Shown here piece after piece: positions 50,164 through 60,197 of a stretch of DNA of 61,068 nucleotides; within the stretch, counting starts at the first letter, position 1, and every line of letters begins with the position of its first letter. The notes under the pieces are model-generated. The model made no database searches. It was not told the origin of the DNA and saw nothing but the letters and a program-made list of their open reading frames with translations. The stretch spans positions 1-61,068 of the forward strand of contig JAUZPB010000015.1 in NCBI GenBank assembly GCA_030706145.1, in the 5' to 3' direction. The translations under genes and the position numbers were made by a program. The stretch comes from Bacteroidota bacterium (GTDB lineage: Bacteria > Bacteroidota > Ignavibacteria > Ignavibacteriales > SURF-24).

Positions 50164-50342
50164 AGCGACAATTAAACTTCAAACTGCTGCATCCTGGGCA
50201 TAAACTCATGCTCCCAATAAAAGATATAACAAGGTTAGCAGAAACAGCTTTTTTCCCTAAAACCATCGCTGCCCAGTTTGCATTTTAATGATTCCCAATG
50301 TAATTTAAGTTTAAATCAACTTGAATTTACTTGGTACATTCT

Positions 50343-50837
50343 ATGACAAGTCTTAATTACAAACAAATTATTGTAGTAGTTCTGGGCAGTATGTGCCTGG
50401 GCTTGTCTTATAACTATATTTCCGATAAAAAATTACCCGTATTTGGTTTTGATATTAAGAAATATGTCTCTGCCGAATTACTTAAAGATGATAGTAAAAA
50501 CTCATCTGTAAATGAACCGAAGCATATATCTCTCAAAGAAGCTCTAAAACTGTATCAGGCAAATGTAACTTTTATTGATGCCAGGGAAGAAGAAGACTAT
50601 CAAAATGGTCATATAAAAAACGCAATAAACATTCCATATGCAAAGCTTGAAAACTATAAACAAAAGCTTATTGGTATTTCTAAAGATGAACCCTTGGTCT
50701 CTTACTGCGGAGGATCTGACTGCGATCTGAGCATAATGCTTGGAAATAAATTGACTTCATTAGGTTACGACAAAGTTTTTATTTTTTTTGGCGGATGGAA
50801 TACATGGGAAAATGCAAATTATCCTGTTTCAAAATAG
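50343..50837 (+). CDS. Membrane-anchored rhodanese-like protein
   Basis: 164 residues. An N-terminal hydrophobic segment (about 9-24) directs export or anchoring. A single rhodanese domain at about 60-160 has 'TFIDAREEEDYQNGHIKNAINIPY' and active-site Cys in SYCGGSDCDLS; a second Cys sits four residues after the first. 'VFIFFGGWNTWENANYPV' closes the domain. It probably handles sulfane sulfur or acts in redox trafficking outside the cytoplasm. The ATG at 50343 was chosen over an upstream in-frame TTG (50331). The MauE gene follows six bases after its stop. Confidence 0.85.
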   Translation: MTSLNYKQIIVVVLGSMCLGLSYNYISDKKLPVFGFDIKKYVSAELLKDDSKNSSVNEPKHISLKEALKLYQANVTFIDAREEEDYQNGHIKNAINIPYAKLENYKQKLIGISKDEPLVSYCGGSDCDLSIMLGNKLTSLGYDKVFIFFGGWNTWENANYPVSK

Positions 50838-50843
50838 AGGAAT

Positions 50844-51293
50844 ATGAAAAGCATTCTAACTAAAAAATATTTACTTCTGATTGCAAGATTGATCCCTGGA
50901 GTTATATTTATTTTTGCAGGGATGGAGAAAATTTCTGACCCTACTTCATTTGCAAAAGCAATATATGATTACAAGATATTTCCTGAACTGTTAATCAACT
51001 TTTTTGCTTTGGCAATTCCATGGATTGAAGTCGTTTCAGGATTGCTTCTGGTTTTTGGGATATGGGTAAGAGAAAACGCATTTATATTAAATGCCTTATT
51101 ATTAGTATTCATAATCTTGATCTTAATTAGCATTCTTCGTGGCTTAAACATTGAATGTGGCTGCTTTGGAACTGCCTCGGGGAGCAGGGTGGGATGGAGA
51201 AAAATATTAGAAAATGTAGCTCTTCTAATCCCAGGAATCTACTTGACTTATTTTGAGAACATTCCTTTACAACAGGAGAATAGAAATGTTTAA
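50844..51293 (+). CDS. MauE/DoxX-family membrane protein
   Basis: 149 residues, four transmembrane helices, and the MauE/DoxX-like layout: 'LIARLIPGVIFIFAGMEKISDP' at the first helix and the conserved NIECGCFG cysteine pair after the third. MauE relatives take part in disulfide or cofactor handling of periplasmic enzymes. Between rhodanese and DUF1573 genes, with its 3' end overlapping the latter by eight bases, it is probably part of one extracytoplasmic redox cassette. Confidence 0.85.
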   Translation: MKSILTKKYLLLIARLIPGVIFIFAGMEKISDPTSFAKAIYDYKIFPELLINFFALAIPWIEVVSGLLLVFGIWVRENAFILNALLLVFIILILISILRGLNIECGCFGTASGSRVGWRKILENVALLIPGIYLTYFENIPLQQENRNV

Positions 51294-51996
51294 GAAATCC
51301 ATTTTTATTTTGTTTTTTGTTGCTGGTCTTATACTTGCTCAGCAAAATCCAAAAATTACTGTTAAACCATTGCATTATGATCTTGGAAATATTAAACAGG
51401 GAAAGATTGTAACAAAGATCTATCGCGTAAAAAATGAAGGCAGTGGTAAACTTATTATTAAAGACGTAAATGCTACATGCGGCTGTACTGCGGTAAAACC
51501 TATGAAGTATGAGTTGAAACCAGGCGAATCAACAGAACTTAAAGTTACCTTTAACTCGACAGGAAGAATGGGGAAGCAGGAAAAAACAGTTTATATTATA
51601 TCAAATGATCCTGTGAATAGTACACTTCCAATTACATTTTCTGCAAATGTTTTAGCAGAAAAAGAAGTTTCAAAAACACCCAAACTGTCTTTTACTGAAA
51701 GGTCTCATGATTTTGGACGGTTAAGTGAAGGCAAAATTGCCCAGTATAGTTTTGATTTTGTCAACTCAGGTGGTTCGACTCTTGAAATTGGCTATATAGT
51801 TTCTTCAGGTACACTCATTTCTGCACATGTCAGCAACCGCAGGATTGAACCCGGCGCAAAGGGGTCATTAAAGGTTGAACTTGATACTTCTAACATGCAG
51901 GGGAAAGTAACTCAAAATGTTAAAGTTGGTTGTAATGATCCTTCTGAACCGACACAAATCCTCTCTATAACAGCTGATGTAATTAAAAAGAATTAA
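51286..51996 (+). CDS. Exported DUF1573 protein (two Ig-like ASH domains)
   Basis: 236 residues: a signal peptide (MFKKSIFILFFVAGLILA) then two DUF1573/ASH-type immunoglobulin-like domains. The first (about 25-125) has HYDLGNIKQGK and the hallmark DVNATCGCT Cys pair. The second (about 130-235) has SHDFGRLSEGK but lacks the cysteines. AGGAG lies eight bases before the ATG, which decides this start over an upstream frame extension. Likely periplasmic; function of the family is unknown. Confidence 0.85.
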   Translation: MFKKSIFILFFVAGLILAQQNPKITVKPLHYDLGNIKQGKIVTKIYRVKNEGSGKLIIKDVNATCGCTAVKPMKYELKPGESTELKVTFNSTGRMGKQEKTVYIISNDPVNSTLPITFSANVLAEKEVSKTPKLSFTERSHDFGRLSEGKIAQYSFDFVNSGGSTLEIGYIVSSGTLISAHVSNRRIEPGAKGSLKVELDTSNMQGKVTQNVKVGCNDPSEPTQILSITADVIKKN

Positions 51997-52099: not shown

Positions 52100-53785
52100 T
52101 CACTGGCTTAATAGTTCAAGTAACCATTGCCTTTTTTCTCTGAAGGACTTAATGCTGCAATCGAATCTTTCAAAATCTGCAACCATTGAATTAACTACCT
52201 CTTTTGCCTTTTCCGGCTTTTTTTCTCCCAACATCCTTAATAATTCATAATCCACTATTCCATCTCTCATTGCTTCTAAACGAATAGATCCATTGATCTC
52301 CATTTTGCCTGGATAGGCAATATGTGAGTCTCCTGCTGGAAGTACCTGACATCCTTCGAACATTCCCGATACATCTCCATATGGATCGTTGCCCCAGTAG
52401 TTATATCCCCAGTGCAGGTAACCAGTAATACCATATTTATAATTGATCCAGTGAAGTAGCCTGGTTTCAATTAGCGGCAGTTCAATAAATCGGTTAGGGT
52501 AATTTCCTTGTGGTTCCAGACATGTGTAAAACCATACTTCTTTTCCTTCTTTTATTTGCTGCTCATAGAAGCTTAAATCATTTTTTAGAAAATTCAGCTG
52601 AGGAACCCATATATCAATATTTCCAGCTATTCCTGTAGTCTGATCTGCATCAATTATCGGTGTTTTAGGAAGTCCCGACCGTACAAAACTAACCATTGCT
52701 TTATATGACTCTTTGTTAAATTCTATGGGCTCATCTGCAATGTGCTGAACATAAATCCTATCCCATCCTTTTTCTTTCAGATGCATATTAAAAGCAGGTA
52801 AAAACTGCCCATAAAATTCTTTAACCAGTGTGTCTTCAATAGAAAGAATCTTTGTGTATGTGCTGTCACCAATGAACATCGGCACCTGAAGTCCGAAGTC
52901 ACTTTTCCAACCGCCAAGCCTTCCGCCTAAATGACCACCCTCAATTCTCTTCATTCCTCCATTTTCCAAGAAGATGTTAACTGTTTTATCGAAGTTACTG
53001 AAATCAAAGCTATACTCTTTTCCATTTTTCTTAAAAAGCGTTAATTCCATTGGTGAGATCAAAACTACATTCTGCCTGTATTCTTTCATTTTCTCAGCAA
53101 ACAAACCAATGATCTTCCAGTACAAATCTGAGTATTTAGCAACATCTTTACCACCATTCAAAAGTTTTAATTTGTCTGAAGATGCGAACCACCAGTTTGT
53201 GACCCATAGCTTTTGTTCGGGAAGCTTGATATCGTAGACTTTTATGCTGATCTCTTTTTTTATTGAAAACTTTTTCCCGTCAGAATTGCCCGAGAAAACA
53301 ACATTTGTTTTATACAAACCGGGTTTTATATCCTCTGATATCTTTAAGCTTATCCAAACTGGCTGGTTGTCCAATGGCGCTATATCTCTTTTGCTGGCAG
53401 GGACAATTGGATCCGGATACCATCCACTAGGAGAGGGAATCCTGTCGCGTGAAGGATTAGGAGTGTTGCGCCCATTTTTTACATAATCTTCAAAGTAAAC
53501 CTTTGGAATTAGTCTGGAGTTTTCTGTGATAACAGGACTGACTGAAATACTTAAGCCTTCTGTTGCACTTGGATTCCTAAATACAAACTGGAAAGTTGCA
53601 TATTCTCCTTTACAAACATTTGCAAAGGCAGGTTGATCTGGAAAATAGCTTTGTTCTTTCATTATTTTCTCAAGCGGATCAACATACGAAATTATTATGT
53701 TTTTAGGGAAAGATGATGATTTCCCTAAAGTATATTGAAATGTGAGAATGAGAAGAGTAAAGCTTAGGACAATTTTTCTTTTCAT
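52100..53785 (-). CDS. GH123/DUF4091-type glycosidase
   Basis: 561-residue exported protein with a signal peptide (about 1-21). An N-terminal beta-sandwich (about 25-190) precedes a TIM-barrel with the family's Asp-Glu pair D351-E352 in HIADEPIE, the substrate-assisted catalytic pair of GH123 beta-N-acetylgalactosaminidases. The C terminus has 'GYLHWGYNYWGNDPY', 'IAYPGKMEINGSIRLEAMRDGIVDYELL', characteristic of DUF4091. Substrate is inferred. It is last in a same-strand block after the spermidine-synthase-like gene (85-base gap), so co-transcription is possible. Confidence 0.88.
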   Translation of the reverse strand: MKRKIVLSFTLLILTFQYTLGKSSSFPKNIIISYVDPLEKIMKEQSYFPDQPAFANVCKGEYATFQFVFRNPSATEGLSISVSPVITENSRLIPKVYFEDYVKNGRNTPNPSRDRIPSPSGWYPDPIVPASKRDIAPLDNQPVWISLKISEDIKPGLYKTNVVFSGNSDGKKFSIKKEISIKVYDIKLPEQKLWVTNWWFASSDKLKLLNGGKDVAKYSDLYWKIIGLFAEKMKEYRQNVVLISPMELTLFKKNGKEYSFDFSNFDKTVNIFLENGGMKRIEGGHLGGRLGGWKSDFGLQVPMFIGDSTYTKILSIEDTLVKEFYGQFLPAFNMHLKEKGWDRIYVQHIADEPIEFNKESYKAMVSFVRSGLPKTPIIDADQTTGIAGNIDIWVPQLNFLKNDLSFYEQQIKEGKEVWFYTCLEPQGNYPNRFIELPLIETRLLHWINYKYGITGYLHWGYNYWGNDPYGDVSGMFEGCQVLPAGDSHIAYPGKMEINGSIRLEAMRDGIVDYELLRMLGEKKPEKAKEVVNSMVADFERFDCSIKSFREKRQWLLELLSQ

Positions 53786-53870
53786 TATTTTTTGAGATGA
53801 TTATTGTTGGTTGTGCAATACTAAGTATTTAATGAATTATTATCAAGTGTCTTCTGCGTGAGAGAATTCA

Positions 53871-56054
53871 TTATAAACCCCATAGAAAAATAAGAGAAAA
53901 TATGGCTAAACCTGCCATGAATAAAGATGTGATAAGCATTCCATATATTGGAATAAATATTAAAGAAGCTGCCACTGAACCTAGACAGCCGCCAATTAGA
54001 TCGGCTGAATATAATGAGAGCATATCACCATGCTTGTTTAAATGACCACTAAGGCTTGCAAAAGAAAAAATGGCCGATACAAAAAATCCATCTATTATCA
54101 TTAATGCAGATGTAATGACTAATCCATCCATTATGTTAAATTTTATTAAATAATAAATCATAAGATTCATTACGGCAAACCCAAGGATAAGTAATATGCC
54201 AAGCATATAGCGTTTTTTAGTATGTATTTTTTGAGATGTTAGCAAATTATTTACAATATATGCTCCTAAGCTTAGCCCTGCCATAAATGTCATAAGGAGA
54301 ATTCCTATATCCCGGTAAAGTACACCGTTTTTACTCTGATAGTTCAATATAAGAATAGCTTCAGCTATCATTCCAATTAAGCCGAAGAGGGTTACTAAAA
54401 TAAAACGGTGAAGTTTTGAAGACCTTATTATTAATATGAGCATTGTAATTACTAGAGCAGACAACCATAGAATTTCCGAACCAAAGAAATCTTCTACGAC
54501 AATTAAATATCCTTCGGGTCCGGTAATTTTTGAATGAAAGAATTTTGACAGCCATATTGAGAGAGTATAACTATAGCATGCAGGTCTAATATCAGAATTA
54601 ATATTGTTCCTTTCTGAATTGTCTTTTCTTGTAAGTATTTCTCTGATCTCCGAAAACCTATCGTTTGTATATACATATTTAATATAATCTGGAGTAACAA
54701 GCTTTGCTGAAGGTTTCCTTTCATTAAACCTTGAAATAAGAGGAGCCGGATTACTGTTAAGAGGCTCTTTTGAAGCAATAAATATATTTTCTGTCCCCGG
54801 CAGAACAATTATGTTGCTGAAAACAGAATGAAGTGCGTTATATATGCTTTTGTTTCTTGCCACTAAATGACTTGTCCAAAGATTCTCTGAAGAGGGTATC
54901 TTAAAAACCAAAATTGCATCACTTACCATTCTGTAAGAACATTGCCTGAAAAATTCTTGCGTATAGAACCGGTTGCTTTGGGCTGAGGATGGTTCAGGCA
55001 TACATACAACAATAGCATTATAAAGATTTCCTTCACGTAAATAATCCCTTGGATCTCTGTAAATCAAATTTACTTTTTCGTCCTTTAGTTCCTCAATTGC
55101 TTTATTAGGCATACGATGTTTTAACACATTGATGAGTTCTTTATTGAGTTCTACATAATCAATTTTCTTTACTGGAAGTTTCAGTAACTCAGTAATAATT
55201 CCTCCAAATCCATTTCCTAATACAAGCACTTTATCAAGCTTTTCAACATGCAATGTAGAGATCTGTATGAATTCTTCTGCAGAGCTGCTTTCTGTTTCAT
55301 AACAGAGGGCCCCATCTTCAAATACCGATATCTGGTTTTCAAGTGACGTTATTATTAGCCGGTTAAATGGGGTATCTTTTGATTCAACAAGACTAGGATA
55401 ATTCCATTTTGTCATCCATCTGTCTGCTAATGGCGAAAAGAAAAGAAATATTATAAAAAGAAGAAGGCATAACGAGTAAATATTCTCTGAAGAGTTAAAA
55501 CTATTTTTAAGTGAAAAATATGTTATTACTCCAAGTGAGGTAATTGAGCAAATGACCGCAATGGAAAAGTTCTGCAGCCCGGCGTAAAGAAATAATGTTG
55601 AAGTTAGTCCACCTAAAATGCCTCCTAAACTCTCAATTGAATATGCCTTTGCAAGTGTACCATTTAAACTTATAAACCTTCTTGCAGTCCATTGAAATAA
55701 TAATCCCATAATTGTACTAAATGGAATTAGTGCAATTAGCATTGCAAGTATTTGCTTATAAAAAGAGAGATATCCTCCCGGTATTCCTTGAAAAAGAATT
55801 TGTATTAAACGTATGAAAATAACATCTGCAATTAAAAGAAAGGCGGAGATGAAGAAAAGTACCTGTATACTTGTTTCTTTAGGAATTGATTTTCTTCTTC
55901 CAAGTGAAGCTCCCACAGAAGTCCCAATAAGCCAGATACCTATTGACAGTGTGTATATAAGCTCAATTCCATAAAAGGCAACGCTAAGTTCACGTAGAAT
56001 TACTACCTGGCCTAAAATTGAAATAAAACCTACCGCAATTAGAAAGAGTAACAT
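53871..56054 (-). CDS. Integral membrane protein with spermidine-synthase-like domain
   Basis: 727 residues. An N-terminal bundle of about seven to eight transmembrane helices (1-215) is followed by a spermidine/spermine-synthase-like Rossmann domain with SAM-type motif VLVLGNGFGG at 276-285, 'IDYVELNKELINVL' and 'DPRDYLREGNLYNAIVVCMPEPSSAQSNRFYTQEFF'. A second helix bundle (about 520-727) ends the protein. The aminopropyl-transfer residues are not clearly conserved. A start at 56123 would overlap the upstream gene by 62 bases; the ATG at 56054 begins eight bases after that gene and has AAAAGGAA ten bases upstream. Confidence 0.82.
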   Translation of the reverse strand: MLLFLIAVGFISILGQVVILRELSVAFYGIELIYTLSIGIWLIGTSVGASLGRRKSIPKETSIQVLFFISAFLLIADVIFIRLIQILFQGIPGGYLSFYKQILAMLIALIPFSTIMGLLFQWTARRFISLNGTLAKAYSIESLGGILGGLTSTLFLYAGLQNFSIAVICSITSLGVITYFSLKNSFNSSENIYSLCLLLFIIFLFFSPLADRWMTKWNYPSLVESKDTPFNRLIITSLENQISVFEDGALCYETESSSAEEFIQISTLHVEKLDKVLVLGNGFGGIITELLKLPVKKIDYVELNKELINVLKHRMPNKAIEELKDEKVNLIYRDPRDYLREGNLYNAIVVCMPEPSSAQSNRFYTQEFFRQCSYRMVSDAILVFKIPSSENLWTSHLVARNKSIYNALHSVFSNIIVLPGTENIFIASKEPLNSNPAPLISRFNERKPSAKLVTPDYIKYVYTNDRFSEIREILTRKDNSERNNINSDIRPACYSYTLSIWLSKFFHSKITGPEGYLIVVEDFFGSEILWLSALVITMLILIIRSSKLHRFILVTLFGLIGMIAEAILILNYQSKNGVLYRDIGILLMTFMAGLSLGAYIVNNLLTSQKIHTKKRYMLGILLILGFAVMNLMIYYLIKFNIMDGLVITSALMIIDGFFVSAIFSFASLSGHLNKHGDMLSLYSADLIGGCLGSVAASLIFIPIYGMLITSLFMAGLAIFSLIFLWGL

Positions 56055-56061
56055 TTTATGG

Positions 56062-57621
56062 CTATTCCTTTTCGCTAAAGATATCAGCCTGAAATGTATA
56101 AAGCTCTGCTTCTTTCCAGTCACCTTTGTTGAGCCCTGCTTTTAAGGATAACTGGTCTAAAAATGTTTGCTTGTTCCATCCTGTTTCTGTAGCTACCTGT
56201 GGCAGAAATACAGCTTGATAGTTACCTTTCTTTAACAAAACTCCATCACGACCTAGTTGTATATCATCTGCACTGCCAATTCGCCTGAAAGGAGTTAGAA
56301 CTGATATTTCAATTCTTATCTTGGGCAGTTCTACAGGACTTAAAGGATCAAATCTATTATCCTTAAATGCTGCATTTAGTGTCATTGAACCTATAGTTGC
56401 ATAAATGGGAATATCTTCTGCCATATGTCCAATACAGCCTCTTAACTCTCCATTTAGCTTGAGAGTTACAAAAGCGCCCCGCTTTATCTTCATTAATGGT
56501 GTATTACCACCTCTTGGAATAGGCACAGTTTGCGTCCAAAAGAACTGAGCTAAAGTGCTGCGTGAATAAGTCAAAAGCTCTTCTTTATCTTTACTTGTTA
56601 AACTGTAAGTAGCCTGTTCCTCTAAGTTACCTATTATTGGAACATTGCTTTCTCCGTCTGAAGTGGAAGTATTTGTGCCAGTTGTATTAGAACCACATAT
56701 TGCAACTGCTCCATAACCGACTACTTTACTTATATCTCCAACTGGATTGTAACCTGAATTGCTGTAGCTTATTATTGTGCCTTGTTTTGCTCCTAAGTCT
56801 TTTGCAGTTGCTATGGCAGCTAGTACAGGTGCTTCACCACATGCACATGTCAGAAGATTTGCTACTTTTTTATCAAGCTGCGATCGCATCTCTGAACCAA
56901 TTTCATTTAAGTTAAGAGTTGTTATAGTCTTTAACGTCTTTCTATCGGTCTTTAATGCGTCATCAAAATTTGGATAATGCGATAGATCTGAACTTGCTAC
57001 TATAAGAGCCTTCTTATTCTTAAGTATAGATGAAAGGGCATTAGCCAGCTTAGTATATATTTCAGGGGATGATCCGCTTACAATTATAGGCAGTATCTTT
57101 GTCTCTGGAAATAAATATTTAATGAAAGGGACTTGTACTTCTATTGAATGCTCTTTTGCATGAACACTTAGGTCAGTTGTAAAAGAAGGATCCTTCTTTA
57201 GAAGAGCAGATGCAGTTTGTTCATCTATATCTGCATTGCCAATTGGAGTCCCAAATGCTCCTTTGGGATAGATTGATATACCTGTAAAATCAGCAGATGT
57301 ATGATTGGTACCTAGAATGACAATAAGATCATAACTGTTATTTTTTATTTGATTTAATGCGTCGGCTGCTATTTGTCCTGAAAATATGTACCCTGCATGG
57401 GGTATCACAATTGCTAATACATTTTTCAGTACAGGAGTTTTTGCCTGGGCAAAAAATGTTTTTAGTGTGTTGTTTAGTACCTTGGGATCTGATGGATAAA
57501 ATTCCCCGGCAAAAACCGGTTTTCTTACTTCTTCAGGCGGTATACTTCCGGAATCAAGTCTTTGACCTTTGCAGGAAGAAGCTATAAAAATAAGCACAAA
57601 ATATAATAAAAGCCTTTTCAT
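56062..57621 (-). CDS. Memo-AMMECR1 fusion lipoprotein (AmmeMemoRadiSam proteins B and A)
   Basis: 519 residues joining two members of the AmmeMemoRadiSam triad. A lipoprotein signal (IASSC, Cys17) is followed by a Memo domain at about 30-310. Metal-ligand positions equivalent to those of human MEMO1 are visible: H75 in PHAGY, H107 in GTNH and a Cys in TCACGEAP (259/261). 'SSDLSHY' is near 210. After a Ser/Thr/Gly linker, an AMMECR1 domain at about 335-519 has the hallmark LRGCIGH at 393-399. Biochemical function of either domain in bacteria is not established. It lies between the radical SAM gene and the membrane synthase-like gene. Confidence 0.92.
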   Translation of the reverse strand: MKRLLLYFVLIFIASSCKGQRLDSGSIPPEEVRKPVFAGEFYPSDPKVLNNTLKTFFAQAKTPVLKNVLAIVIPHAGYIFSGQIAADALNQIKNNSYDLIVILGTNHTSADFTGISIYPKGAFGTPIGNADIDEQTASALLKKDPSFTTDLSVHAKEHSIEVQVPFIKYLFPETKILPIIVSGSSPEIYTKLANALSSILKNKKALIVASSDLSHYPNFDDALKTDRKTLKTITTLNLNEIGSEMRSQLDKKVANLLTCACGEAPVLAAIATAKDLGAKQGTIISYSNSGYNPVGDISKVVGYGAVAICGSNTTGTNTSTSDGESNVPIIGNLEEQATYSLTSKDKEELLTYSRSTLAQFFWTQTVPIPRGGNTPLMKIKRGAFVTLKLNGELRGCIGHMAEDIPIYATIGSMTLNAAFKDNRFDPLSPVELPKIRIEISVLTPFRRIGSADDIQLGRDGVLLKKGNYQAVFLPQVATETGWNKQTFLDQLSLKAGLNKGDWKEAELYTFQADIFSEKE

Positions 57622-57706
57622 GATTCCCTCAATAGATCTTTTTGCTTTTGCCCTTTAATGGGGCCCAATGATTTTTGATACAGTTGTTTCTTATTCATAA
57701 TGTCTT

Positions 57707-58951
57707 TTATTGCCATACTCCTGCTATTGCTTGCCTGCAGTAGCGGCACTTCCCTTGTTCAATATGATTTTCCAGTGTAAACATACCGTTTCTTATGACA
57801 ATAGCTTTTTTGCAGGAAGGGCAGTATGTCGAATTTCCTTCATGATCTGGAATATTTCCTACATATGCATAGTGAATCCCTTTTGAGATGGCAATGTTTC
57901 TTGCTCTTTCTATTGTCGCTACTGGAGTAGGGGAGAGGTTTTGAAGTTTATAGTCGGGGTGAAATCTTGTAAAATGTATTGGTACGTCAGGCCCAAGTTC
58001 TCCATATATCCAGTCTACTAATCCATAAAGCATTTTATCAGAATCATTAAGCGTTGGAACAACCAGGTTTACTAATTCCAGATGTACTTTTGTTTTTGAT
58101 ATTTGCTTAATTGAGTTAAGTACTGGCCTTAGCTCTGCAGAGCATACCTTTTGGTAAAACTCTTCACTGTATCCTTTCAGATCTATCTTTATAGCATCCA
58201 GAACATTGCACATTTCTCTAAGAGGTCCATAGCTCATAAAACCGCAACTGACTAATGCAGTTCTGATACCTCTTTCTTTTGCTTCTTTTGCGATATCCAT
58301 TAAATACTCAAAAAATACGGTGGGTTCATTATATGTAAATGCAATGATTGGTGCATTTTGTGATTTTGCGCTTGTTACAATACTATTTGCCGGAATGTAT
58401 GAAGATGGAAAATCCTCTGGTTTTGACTGTGATATTTGCCAGTTTTGACAAAACTGGCATGAAAGGGGACATCCTGAAGTTGCCATAGAAAAGGCCTGAT
58501 GGCCTGGAAGAAAGTGATAAAAAGGCTTTTTTTCTATGGGATCAGTATGTATTGAGACTGGTCTGCCGTAGACTAGGCTTTTCAATTTCCCATCAATGTT
58601 CATTCTGGCCCGGCACTTACCCCGTTCATTTTCCTTAATTACACATCCTTGCGCACAAAGTAAGCATTTGACAGGTCTGCTATCATGGTTAAATTTGGTC
58701 AAACCTTTTATTTGAGCTGGATTATGGCAGGAAGTACACCTTGCCTGACTTGAATTTACCGGTATCCAATATTGCGCTTCAGGGGCGGTTTTATAAAGCT
58801 CTTGAAGATATTTGTTTTCTATACTGTTGCCAAAAAATGAAAAGAGATCTTCAAGGGTAGATGGAATAATCACTCCCGATGTGCATAAACAACCGAGAAA
58901 GAGTCCCGATCTGCCGATGAATTCTCTTCTTGAAAGTATTTGCCCTTTCAT
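57707..58951 (-). CDS. amrS: AmmeMemoRadiSam system radical SAM enzyme with Tat signal
   Basis: 414 residues from the ATG at 58951 (a GTG at 58963 adds four; residue numbers here follow the longer form). The N terminus has a twin-arginine motif SRREFIG at 11-17, a hydrophobic stretch and an LGCLC sequence at 23-27 that could act as a lipobox. A CTSCH (CxxCH) motif at 76-80 and the family's 'CLLCAQGCVI...GKCRAR' Cys cluster near 100-118 follow. Radical SAM CPLSCQFC supplies C165, C169 and C172. The C terminus has two CxxC pairs (YCPSCK, CRYCRQ). Product and substrate unknown. First gene of the minus-strand block. Confidence 0.92.
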   Translation of the reverse strand: MKGQILSRREFIGRSGLFLGCLCTSGVIIPSTLEDLFSFFGNSIENKYLQELYKTAPEAQYWIPVNSSQARCTSCHNPAQIKGLTKFNHDSRPVKCLLCAQGCVIKENERGKCRARMNIDGKLKSLVYGRPVSIHTDPIEKKPFYHFLPGHQAFSMATSGCPLSCQFCQNWQISQSKPEDFPSSYIPANSIVTSAKSQNAPIIAFTYNEPTVFFEYLMDIAKEAKERGIRTALVSCGFMSYGPLREMCNVLDAIKIDLKGYSEEFYQKVCSAELRPVLNSIKQISKTKVHLELVNLVVPTLNDSDKMLYGLVDWIYGELGPDVPIHFTRFHPDYKLQNLSPTPVATIERARNIAISKGIHYAYVGNIPDHEGNSTYCPSCKKAIVIRNGMFTLENHIEQGKCRYCRQAIAGVWQ

Positions 58952-59159
58952 TTGTTTATTCACTTAAATAGTGTTTAATCTCTGCTCTAAAGTAAAAAGT
59001 AATTCTTAAAAAGTAAAAGGTAAAAGAAATGTTCTGAATAACTATATTAAACAAGCTGGCTGGCAATTACTCCCTTTTAAATAAAACGAAATTTCTTAGT
59101 TTACTTTTTCCTATTTGGTTCTTAGTTTACACAATTAACTTTTAGGATTACGAGTTTAT

Positions 59160-60197
59160 ATGAAACAAATATTATACTCTGCAATAATACTAGGCCTTTT
59201 GTTCATCCCTTCGTGCGTTTCTGTCAAACAGATGCCAGTTGGACCCAAGCCGGGTGAAAAATGGAGAGCTATTCATCTGCTTAATTATACCAATGATGCT
59301 TTGTTGGATTCTCTGAGCAATAAAATTCCTCTTCTTGCAGAGAAAGGAGTAAATGTTATATTTCTGGAGGTAGATTATAGTTTCGACTTTAAATCCCATC
59401 CTGAATTACGCCAGGGACCTAGCTTTATTACAAAAAGCGGAGCTGAAAAATTCTCTGAGGTCTGCCGTGATAATAACATAAAACTGGTCATTGAGTTTCA
59501 ATGCTTTGGCCATCAGTCATGGGCAAAGAAAACTTTTCCTCTTTTAACAGTATATCCGGACTTGGATTTAACAAAAGGAGCTTATCCTAACAACGATAGC
59601 ATTTATTGCAGGGAGTGGGACCCATATAATCCAAAGGTTAATAAGATCGTTTATTCTCTTATCGATGAATTAGTAGATGCATTTGATGTAGATGGTATCC
59701 ATGTTGGAATGGATGAGGTCTTTTTAATAAATGATAAATTCGCGGCTTCTACTAAAGATAAAAATCCTGCAGAAGTTTATGCAAAGGTTGTTAATGATCT
59801 GTATGATCACATTACAAAACAACGCCATTTACAAATGTATATGTGGGGTGATAGACTCATCGATGGTACAAAACTTAATATGGGGGCTTGGGAAGCTTCT
59901 CAGAATGGGACTTATCCTGCTATTGATCTGATACCAAAAGATATTATTGTTTGCGATTGGCATTATGATTTAAGAGATGAGTATTCTTCAGTCCCGATGT
60001 TTCTTTCAAAAGGTTTTCGCGTACTGCCAACTAGTTGGAAAAACAAAGAAGCCTCAAACAAACTGATCGAATATTCAAAGCAATTTAACGATCCCAAAAT
60101 GCTTGGACATTTATTTTCTTTCTGGAATGGAAGTATCGATAGCATGATGAACTCACAGGCAATGAACGAAGGTCTTAAGTTGCTTGTAAAAAAATAG
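59160..60197 (+). CDS. GH20-type beta-hexosaminidase-like lipoprotein
   Basis: 345 residues with a lipobox (FIPSC, Cys19). A TIM barrel carries the GH20 catalytic signature HVGMDEV with D185-E186, 'VIEFQCFGHQSW' near 110-121, and an aromatic 'MYMWGDRLI' strand. It is shorter than typical hexosaminidases because the N-terminal GH20b domain is missing, so activity is probable but the substrate is uncertain. Divergent from the radical SAM gene; the spacer (58964-59159) shows no obvious regulator site. Confidence 0.83.
   Translation: MKQILYSAIILGLLFIPSCVSVKQMPVGPKPGEKWRAIHLLNYTNDALLDSLSNKIPLLAEKGVNVIFLEVDYSFDFKSHPELRQGPSFITKSGAEKFSEVCRDNNIKLVIEFQCFGHQSWAKKTFPLLTVYPDLDLTKGAYPNNDSIYCREWDPYNPKVNKIVYSLIDELVDAFDVDGIHVGMDEVFLINDKFAASTKDKNPAEVYAKVVNDLYDHITKQRHLQMYMWGDRLIDGTKLNMGAWEASQNGTYPAIDLIPKDIIVCDWHYDLRDEYSSVPMFLSKGFRVLPTSWKNKEASNKLIEYSKQFNDPKMLGHLFSFWNGSIDSMMNSQAMNEGLKLLVKK

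What the first reader, a model, noticed from the sequence alone, without database searches (positions are those of the whole stretch)
52100..58951. Export-directed AmmeMemoRadiSam locus with a membrane spermidine-synthase-like protein and a glycosidase
The AMMECR1, Memo and radical SAM families form a widely conserved triad whose role is not established to my knowledge. Here the radical SAM protein has a twin-arginine signal and the Memo-AMMECR1 protein has a lipobox. They sit in one strand block with a polytopic SAM-motif membrane protein and an exported GH123-type enzyme. This suggests an envelope-located version of the system, perhaps modifying a lipid, glycan or polyamine at the membrane. 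Seen: domains, signals, order and strand. Inferred: common function.
Basis: partly seen in the sequence, partly recalled or inferred. Interest (0 to 1): 0.85.

Follow-up and report, generated by a model that had tools for sequence, protein, structure and literature searches.

The report
Exported haem-motif radical SAM gene triad
Three neighbouring genes, conserved together across many bacterial phyla, appear to place a radical SAM enzyme, a family thought to work only inside cells, on the outer face of the cell membrane; it carries a haem-attachment motif and comes with a metal-binding partner and a transporter-like membrane protein.

Summary
The - strand block encodes a TIGR04337 radical SAM protein with a twin-arginine signal, a Memo-AMMECR1 fusion with a lipobox, and a polytopic protein with a spermidine-synthase-fold domain. 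These three genes form a real unit. They recur across at least eight phyla, and the membrane gene and this radical SAM type occur in exactly the same genomes (5 of 59 relatives; 12 of 39 in another phylum). GH123 is not part of the unit.

The exported radical SAM protein carries an added CxxCH...H block, the signature of a c-type haem, in 40 of 42 clade members. It is absent from cytosolic paralogues and from a haem-less exported sister group. The membrane protein is predicted as two 7-TM halves, resembling an MFS transporter, around an outward-facing SAM-type domain. It has lost the acidic residues of spermidine synthases, so a polyamine role is unlikely.

Best reading: an extracytoplasmic AmmeMemoRadiSam system, with the radical SAM enzyme at the outer face of the inner membrane, wired by haem, and supplied with SAM by its membrane partner. 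Gene unit and export are well supported by sequence; haem binding is likely; SAM supply and substrate are inference.

The parts
57707..58951 (-). Exported AmmeMemoRadiSam-type radical SAM protein (TIGR04337), ATG start 58951 (alternative GTG 58963; residue numbers below count from the GTG)
   Evidence: TIGR04337 367 bits; AF2 model pLDDT 91.4 matches pyruvate formate-lyase activating enzyme 3cb8, Z 24.1, 225 residues, 2.1 A
58865..58951 (-). Tat-type signal region (SRREF + hydrophobic stretch)
   Evidence: R12, R13, F15 invariant in 20 exported relatives; RR in 41 of 41 clade members with N-terminus held; TatC in 35 of 36 such genomes including this one
58685..58738 (-). CTSCH...H block (C76, C79, H80, H93): c-type haem attachment motif with a candidate distal histidine
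   Evidence: invariant in A1; 40 of 42 clade members, with 33 different xx pairs; absent from cytosolic and haem-less exported relatives
58613..58666 (-). CxxCxxxC...C block (C100, C103, C107, C117) shared with all relatives, separate from the haem motif
   Evidence: invariant in 47 sequences including cytosolic ones
58448..58471 (-). Radical SAM CxxxCxxC (C165, C169, C172)
   Evidence: invariant in 47 sequences; Pfam Radical_SAM
56062..57621 (-). Exported Memo-AMMECR1 fusion lipoprotein, 519 aa
   Evidence: TIGR04336 + TIGR04335; alignment A3
57571..57621 (-). Lipoprotein signal peptide (MKRLLLYFVLIFIASSC, lipobox Cys17)
   Evidence: lipobox or hydrophobic N-terminus in nearly all relatives
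56707..57519 (-). Memo domain with metal ligands H75, H107, C261
   Evidence: aligned to MEMO1 H49, H81, C244, the Fe/Cu ligands of MEMO1 (PMC11081632); invariant in 21 relatives
56077..56568 (-). AMMECR1 domain with the LRGCIG motif
   Evidence: Pfam/TIGR04335; L393 R394 G395 C396 and G398 invariant
53871..56054 (-). 14-TM membrane protein with inserted spermidine-synthase-fold domain, 727 aa
   Evidence: AF2 model pLDDT 86.6, pTM 0.88; topology; co-occurrence
55407..56054 (-). N-terminal 7-TM half
   Evidence: resembles the C-terminal half (hhalign E 1.8e-5)
54540..55403 (-). Outward-facing spermidine-synthase / methyltransferase-fold domain
   Evidence: Z 26.2 to thermospermine synthase 6bq2; nucleoside site kept, amine-site acids lost
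53874..54521 (-). C-terminal 7-TM half
   Evidence: both halves together align to MFS transporter 6rw3, Z 18.7, 336 residues, 4.1 A

Best explanation
This is an extracytoplasmic, haem-bearing version of the AmmeMemoRadiSam system, made of three components. (1) A pyruvate-formate-lyase-activase-like radical SAM enzyme is exported folded, with its Fe-S cluster, by Tat and sits at the outer face of the inner membrane; its N-terminal CxxCH...H block binds one c-type haem that passes electrons between the periplasmic cytochrome pool and the radical SAM cluster. (2) A Sec-exported, often lipid-anchored Memo-AMMECR1 protein brings a mononuclear Fe (or Cu) site (2 His, 1 Cys) to the same place and acts on the same substrate or product. 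(3) A membrane protein, two 7-TM halves around an outward-facing spermidine-synthase/methyltransferase-fold domain, delivers or holds S-adenosylmethionine (or removes its products) on the outer side. Together they modify an envelope or periplasmic substrate that is not encoded beside them. Shown by sequence: gene unit, co-occurrence, export signals, motifs, conserved ligands, predicted folds. Inferred: haem binding (about 0.75), outward orientation of the SAM-type domain (about 0.85), SAM supply by the membrane partner (about 0.35), use of haem in electron transfer (about 0.5), common substrate (about 0.8).
For: Gene unit: the three genes are adjacent in most loci with enough flank, across at least eight phyla. 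In a haem-less sister group the same three genes are kept in other orders (L131-L137). Exact co-occurrence: full-strength membrane-gene matches fall in the same 5 of 59 relatives and the same 12 of 39 genomes of another phylum as the haem-motif radical SAM; in several of these the genes lie on different contigs. Correlated divergence of the three proteins (r 0.63-0.76, none of 1000 permutations). Export: RR in 41/41, Memo-AMMECR1 signals, TatC. Haem block: invariant C, C, H, H with free residues between; predicted as short helices; the clade is supported 100/100, with one later loss of the whole block. All 47 genomes tested (haem and haem-less carriers) have a cytochrome c assembly protein. 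Topology: loops predicted inside average 1.0-2.6 K/R, those outside 0-1.0. Fold of TM part like MFS; halves related. Precedent for a 7-TM protein with a spermidine-synthase-like methyltransferase domain, localised to the ER and acting on secreted proteins: fungal NHMT (PMC10349129), which also lacks the GxG(D/E)G acid. The genomes also keep a cytosolic-length radical SAM and, here, separate Memo and AMMECR1 genes, so the exported set is an addition.
Against: No radical SAM enzyme is known to me to work outside the cytoplasm; SAM and low-potential electrons are not known there. A bis-His c-haem is usually too positive to reduce a radical SAM cluster directly, so it may instead accept electrons. 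The haem block is dispensable (L078, L079, and the haem-less exported group). Cytochrome c assembly genes are almost universal in these phyla (38 of 39), so their presence does not discriminate. No Pfam cytochrome family matches the N-terminal block over its cut-off. The MFS match rests on a predicted model. Almost all carriers are uncultured genomes.
Confidence: 0.55

Rival explanations
1. The CxxCH...H block is a zinc site (CCHH), a structural addition to the exported enzyme, and no haem is involved. The rest of the exported-system model stands.
For: Four conserved ligands C, C, H, H would also bind zinc; the weak sub-threshold Pfam hits to this stretch are mostly zinc ribbons or cysteine-rich peptides; other Cys pairs in the protein probably bind metal.
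Against: The His directly after the second Cys is invariant, as haem c needs; the CxxC lies in a predicted short helix, not a strand-turn knuckle; spacing to the distal His varies widely; the protein is exported and the genomes hold cytochrome c assembly genes.
Confidence: 0.2
2. The radical SAM protein does its chemistry in the cytoplasm, and its Tat-type N-terminus only targets or exports it afterwards, so no extracytoplasmic SAM is needed.
For: SAM and reductants are in the cytoplasm; Tat exports folded protein, so a reaction could happen first; no clear cleavage site is seen by eye in the window protein.
Against: The partner Memo-AMMECR1 is exported by Sec and the synthase-fold domain is predicted outside, so all three meet outside; a CxxCH haem is attached outside; a cytosolic paralogue already exists in the same genome.
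Confidence: 0.15
3. The radical SAM protein is an activase of the PFL-AE kind that modifies the AMMECR1 domain itself (for example its invariant LRGCIG-type motif) or Memo, making a radical or altered residue used as the catalyst.
For: Closest solved fold is PFL-activating enzyme, Z 24.1 with 22% identity; LRGC-G positions invariant; partners co-diverge.
Against: Eukaryotic and many other AMMECR1 proteins keep LRGCIG without a radical SAM partner (own knowledge); no glycyl-radical enzyme is encoded nearby.
Confidence: 0.12
4. One reading: an envelope polyamine, lipid or glycan pathway in which the membrane protein makes a polyamine and GH123 trims a glycan.
For: Spermine_synth Pfam hit; GH123 and a GH20-like lipoprotein flank the block.
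Against: Acids needed for decarboxylated SAM and amine binding are lost (GGGDG to GGGVEG; DSTDP to AMPEP); GH123 is absent from every other triad locus.
Confidence: 0.05

Closest known systems
AmmeMemoRadiSam system (TIGR04335, TIGR04336, TIGR04337)
   Same: All three defining protein families, over cut-off.
   Different: Exported rather than cytosolic; Memo and AMMECR1 fused; radical SAM has a Tat signal and a CxxCH...H block; constant membrane partner.
Pyruvate formate-lyase activating enzyme (3cb8)
   Same: Radical SAM core fold and CxxxCxxC, Z 24.1.
   Different: Extra N-terminal signal, haem-motif block and two Cys-rich parts; no glycyl radical enzyme beside it.
Fungal NHMT (AN4663), seven-transmembrane N-terminal-histidine methyltransferase (PMC10349129)
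   Same: 7-TM part followed by a spermidine-synthase-like SAM domain, located to the ER, acting on secreted proteins; acid of the GxG(D/E)G motif lost.
   Different: One 7-TM part instead of two; fungal; homology of the TM parts not tested.
Human MEMO1 (7kq8)
   Same: Memo fold; Fe/Cu ligands H49, H81, C244 all conserved.
   Different: MEMO1 is cytosolic and has no AMMECR1 fusion or radical SAM partner.
Spermidine synthases / PRK03612-type membrane polyamine aminopropyltransferases
   Same: Fold of the soluble domain (Z 24-26); match to PRK03612 over residues 30-408, TM part included.
   Different: Far below the family cut-off (99 vs 472 bits); catalytic acids lost; second TM half.

Membership tests
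AmmeMemoRadiSam system | Radical SAM (TIGR04337), Memo (TIGR04336) and AMMECR1 (TIGR04335) encoded together | tested here: met
   367, 243 and 160 bits, all over cut-off; adjacent genes
Radical SAM superfamily | CxxxCxxC and partial TIM-barrel fold | tested here: met
   C165/C169/C172 invariant in 47; Z 24.1 to 3cb8
Radical SAM superfamily | SAM cleavage to 5'-deoxyadenosine | not testable with these tools
   needs biochemistry
Tat substrate | RR motif before a hydrophobic stretch, conserved in homologues; TatC in genome | tested here: met
Tat substrate | Actual translocation | not testable with these tools
   reporter fusion needed
c-type haem protein | CxxCH in an exported protein, with cytochrome c assembly genes in the genome | tested here: met
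c-type haem protein | Match to a known cytochrome c family | tested here: inconclusive
   no Pfam hit over cut-off for seven N-terminal segments
c-type haem protein | Covalent haem | not testable with these tools
   needs mass spectrometry or haem stain
Spermidine synthase | Fold | tested here: met
Spermidine synthase | Acids binding decarboxylated SAM and amine (GGGDG, DSTDP) | tested here: not met
   position 283 acidic in 1 of 18, position 351 in 1 of 18; alignment to 1inl
MFS transporter | Two related TM halves in MFS arrangement | tested here: inconclusive
   Z 18.7 over 336 residues to 6rw3, halves related E 1.8e-5; 7 TM each, no Pfam MFS hit
Memo | Metal ligands His, His, Cys | tested here: met
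   H75, H107, C261 invariant, aligned to MEMO1 ligands

The most novel reading that the evidence does not exclude
A radical SAM enzyme that works outside the cytoplasm, drawing electrons through a covalently bound c-type haem in its own chain and SAM through a dedicated MFS-like membrane partner with an outward SAM-binding domain.
Probability: 0.3. Interest if true: 0.95.

Novelty: new variant of a known kind. Interest (0 to 1): 0.78.

Why it matters
The Memo and AMMECR1 families are conserved from bacteria to man, and together with this radical SAM family they have no established reaction. An exported version narrows the question sharply: the substrate must be in the envelope, the three partners are fixed, and haem would give a spectroscopic handle. 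If it works outside, it would break the rule that radical SAM chemistry is cytoplasmic and would imply SAM in the periplasm.

Tried and rejected
GH123 as part of the system: no homologue in any other triad locus. A fourth conserved neighbour: none in 3 or more loci with a plausible link. Co-occurrence with cytochrome c assembly as a test of haem: uninformative because it is nearly universal; the two genomes whose radical SAM lost the block (G461, G561) still have it. Known family for the N-terminal block: none over cut-off; the fold comparison covered residues 133-418 only. Coordinates of models were not available, so haem versus zinc geometry could not be measured. The literature library has no paper on an exported AmmeMemoRadiSam system; the key Memo survey (doi 10.1074/jbc.RA119.007595, known to me from memory) is not held, so it may describe parts of this. 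Absence from this library is not proof of novelty.

Full report
What is there. The - strand of 52100-58963 carries four ORFs in a row: a radical SAM protein, a Memo-AMMECR1 fusion, a polytopic protein with a spermidine-synthase domain, and a GH123 enzyme. Pfam and NCBIfam confirm each. The radical SAM, Memo and AMMECR1 parts all exceed the NCBIfam cut-offs for the AmmeMemoRadiSam system. The first three genes are close together (85 bases, then 7 bases if the membrane protein starts at the ATG 56054, where relatives start).

The unit. One scan of genome contigs with the Memo-AMMECR1 protein brought 24 loci from Latescibacterota, Myxococcota, KSB1, Electryoneota, Acidobacteriota, Aminicenantota, Gemmatimonadota, Desulfobacteraceae, Ignavibacteriota and others (phylum names also). 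Where the flank suffices, the order is mostly radical SAM, Memo-AMMECR1, membrane protein, with short gaps. No other gene recurs. GH123 is found in no other triad locus. In 59 relatives, 5 genomes hold the full-length radical SAM form and the same 5 hold the strong membrane-gene match. In 39 genomes of another phylum the two sets are again identical, 12 and 12. By simple counting such agreement has a chance of about 2e-7 and 3e-10 (not corrected for ancestry). In G421, G935, G925 and G418 the two genes are on different contigs, so co-occurrence is not only linkage, though contig breaks contribute. Distances between the three proteins correlate.

Export. R12, R13 and F15 are invariant in 20 relatives, and RR is present in all 41 clade members whose N-terminus is held. 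Cytosolic paralogues lack the extension altogether, and the window's own genome has one, plus separate Memo and AMMECR1 genes. Tat export fits a protein whose Fe-S cluster is inserted in the cytoplasm. Memo-AMMECR1 relatives nearly all have a hydrophobic N-terminus and about half a lipobox. TatC is found in 35 of 36 genomes.

The haem motif. Between the signal and the conserved core lies CxxCH, then a stretch of variable length, then His, then the CxxC of the core. C76, C79, H80 and H93 are invariant in 20. In a class defined by similarity only, 40 of 42 have the block, with 33 different xx pairs. This pattern, fixed ligands in free surroundings, is that of a c-type haem with a distal histidine. 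A tree puts all 42 in one clade (100/100) inside the exported group; the two exceptions, L078 and L079, are sisters nested within it and have lost the whole block. So the simplest history is one gain and one loss. All 47 genomes tested have a cytochrome c assembly protein, but so do almost all relatives, so this is only a consistency check. Zinc is the main rival.

The membrane protein. The AlphaFold2 model (pLDDT 86.6, pTM 0.88) has seven helices, a soluble domain (218-505) and seven more helices. The positive-inside rule is met with the N-terminus inside, which puts the soluble domain outside. The soluble domain has the spermidine synthase fold (Z up to 26.2), but the acids for decarboxylated SAM and amine are lost while the nucleoside-binding Gly-rich loop and Glu302 remain. 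The two TM halves are related and together align with an MFS sugar transporter, Z 18.7 over 336 residues. A fungal protein of similar build, NHMT, is located in the ER and methylates secreted LPMOs (PMC10349129); it too has lost the acid. This makes a SAM-handling role on the outer face plausible and a polyamine role unlikely.

Memo and AMMECR1. H75, H107 and C261 match the iron/copper ligands H49, H81 and C244 of MEMO1, and D212 and H215, near the site, are also invariant. AMMECR1 keeps the LRGC-G positions.

The wider family. In Desulfobacterota about a third of 297 genomes carry a radical SAM protein of this type, most with an N-terminal extension; of those read, nearly all have a Tat-type motif and most lack the haem block. 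Several of these sit with the same two partners in other gene orders. Thus the exported AmmeMemoRadiSam system is a broad class and the haem form one clade within it. In the window's phylum it is rare (6 of 395 genomes, three of them the haem form).

Interpretation. The best reading is an envelope-facing radical SAM system: exported enzyme with haem, exported metal-site partner, SAM-handling membrane partner. The gene unit, its signals and its motifs are shown by sequence. Outward orientation, haem binding, and SAM supply are inferred in falling order of confidence, and the substrate is unknown. To my knowledge no radical SAM enzyme has been shown to work outside the cytoplasm; the searched papers gave none.

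Verdict.

Noticed in passing
G000:C14:2751-3452 (L003, L040:2574-3665): A third, divergent Memo-family protein in the same genome, with a signal-like N-terminus and no AMMECR1 or radical SAM neighbour in the fetched stretch.
   Followed up: no
Desulfobacterota genomes G571:C91, G646:C13, G438:C31, G476:C12, G524:C42, G553:C6: Tandem pairs of haem-less, N-terminally extended radical SAM proteins of this family.
   Followed up: no
L098:1731-2786, L094:2753-3802, L087:3-977: A second kind of radical SAM-like protein with a Tat-type start (PflX-like Cys-rich region) next to the exported AmmeMemoRadiSam enzyme.
   Followed up: no
L078:1459-2694 and L079:1501-2694: Two sister proteins that lost the complete CxxCH...H block but kept the rest of the triad and the Tat signal: natural haem-less controls.
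   Followed up: partly
59160-60197: GH20-like lipoprotein divergent from the radical SAM gene; with GH123 on the other side two sugar hydrolases flank the triad in this genome.
   Followed up: partly
50331-51996: Exported rhodanese, MauE/DoxX-type membrane protein and DUF1573 protein in a row on the + strand, converging on the triad block; possibly a periplasmic thiol-redox set.
   Followed up: no
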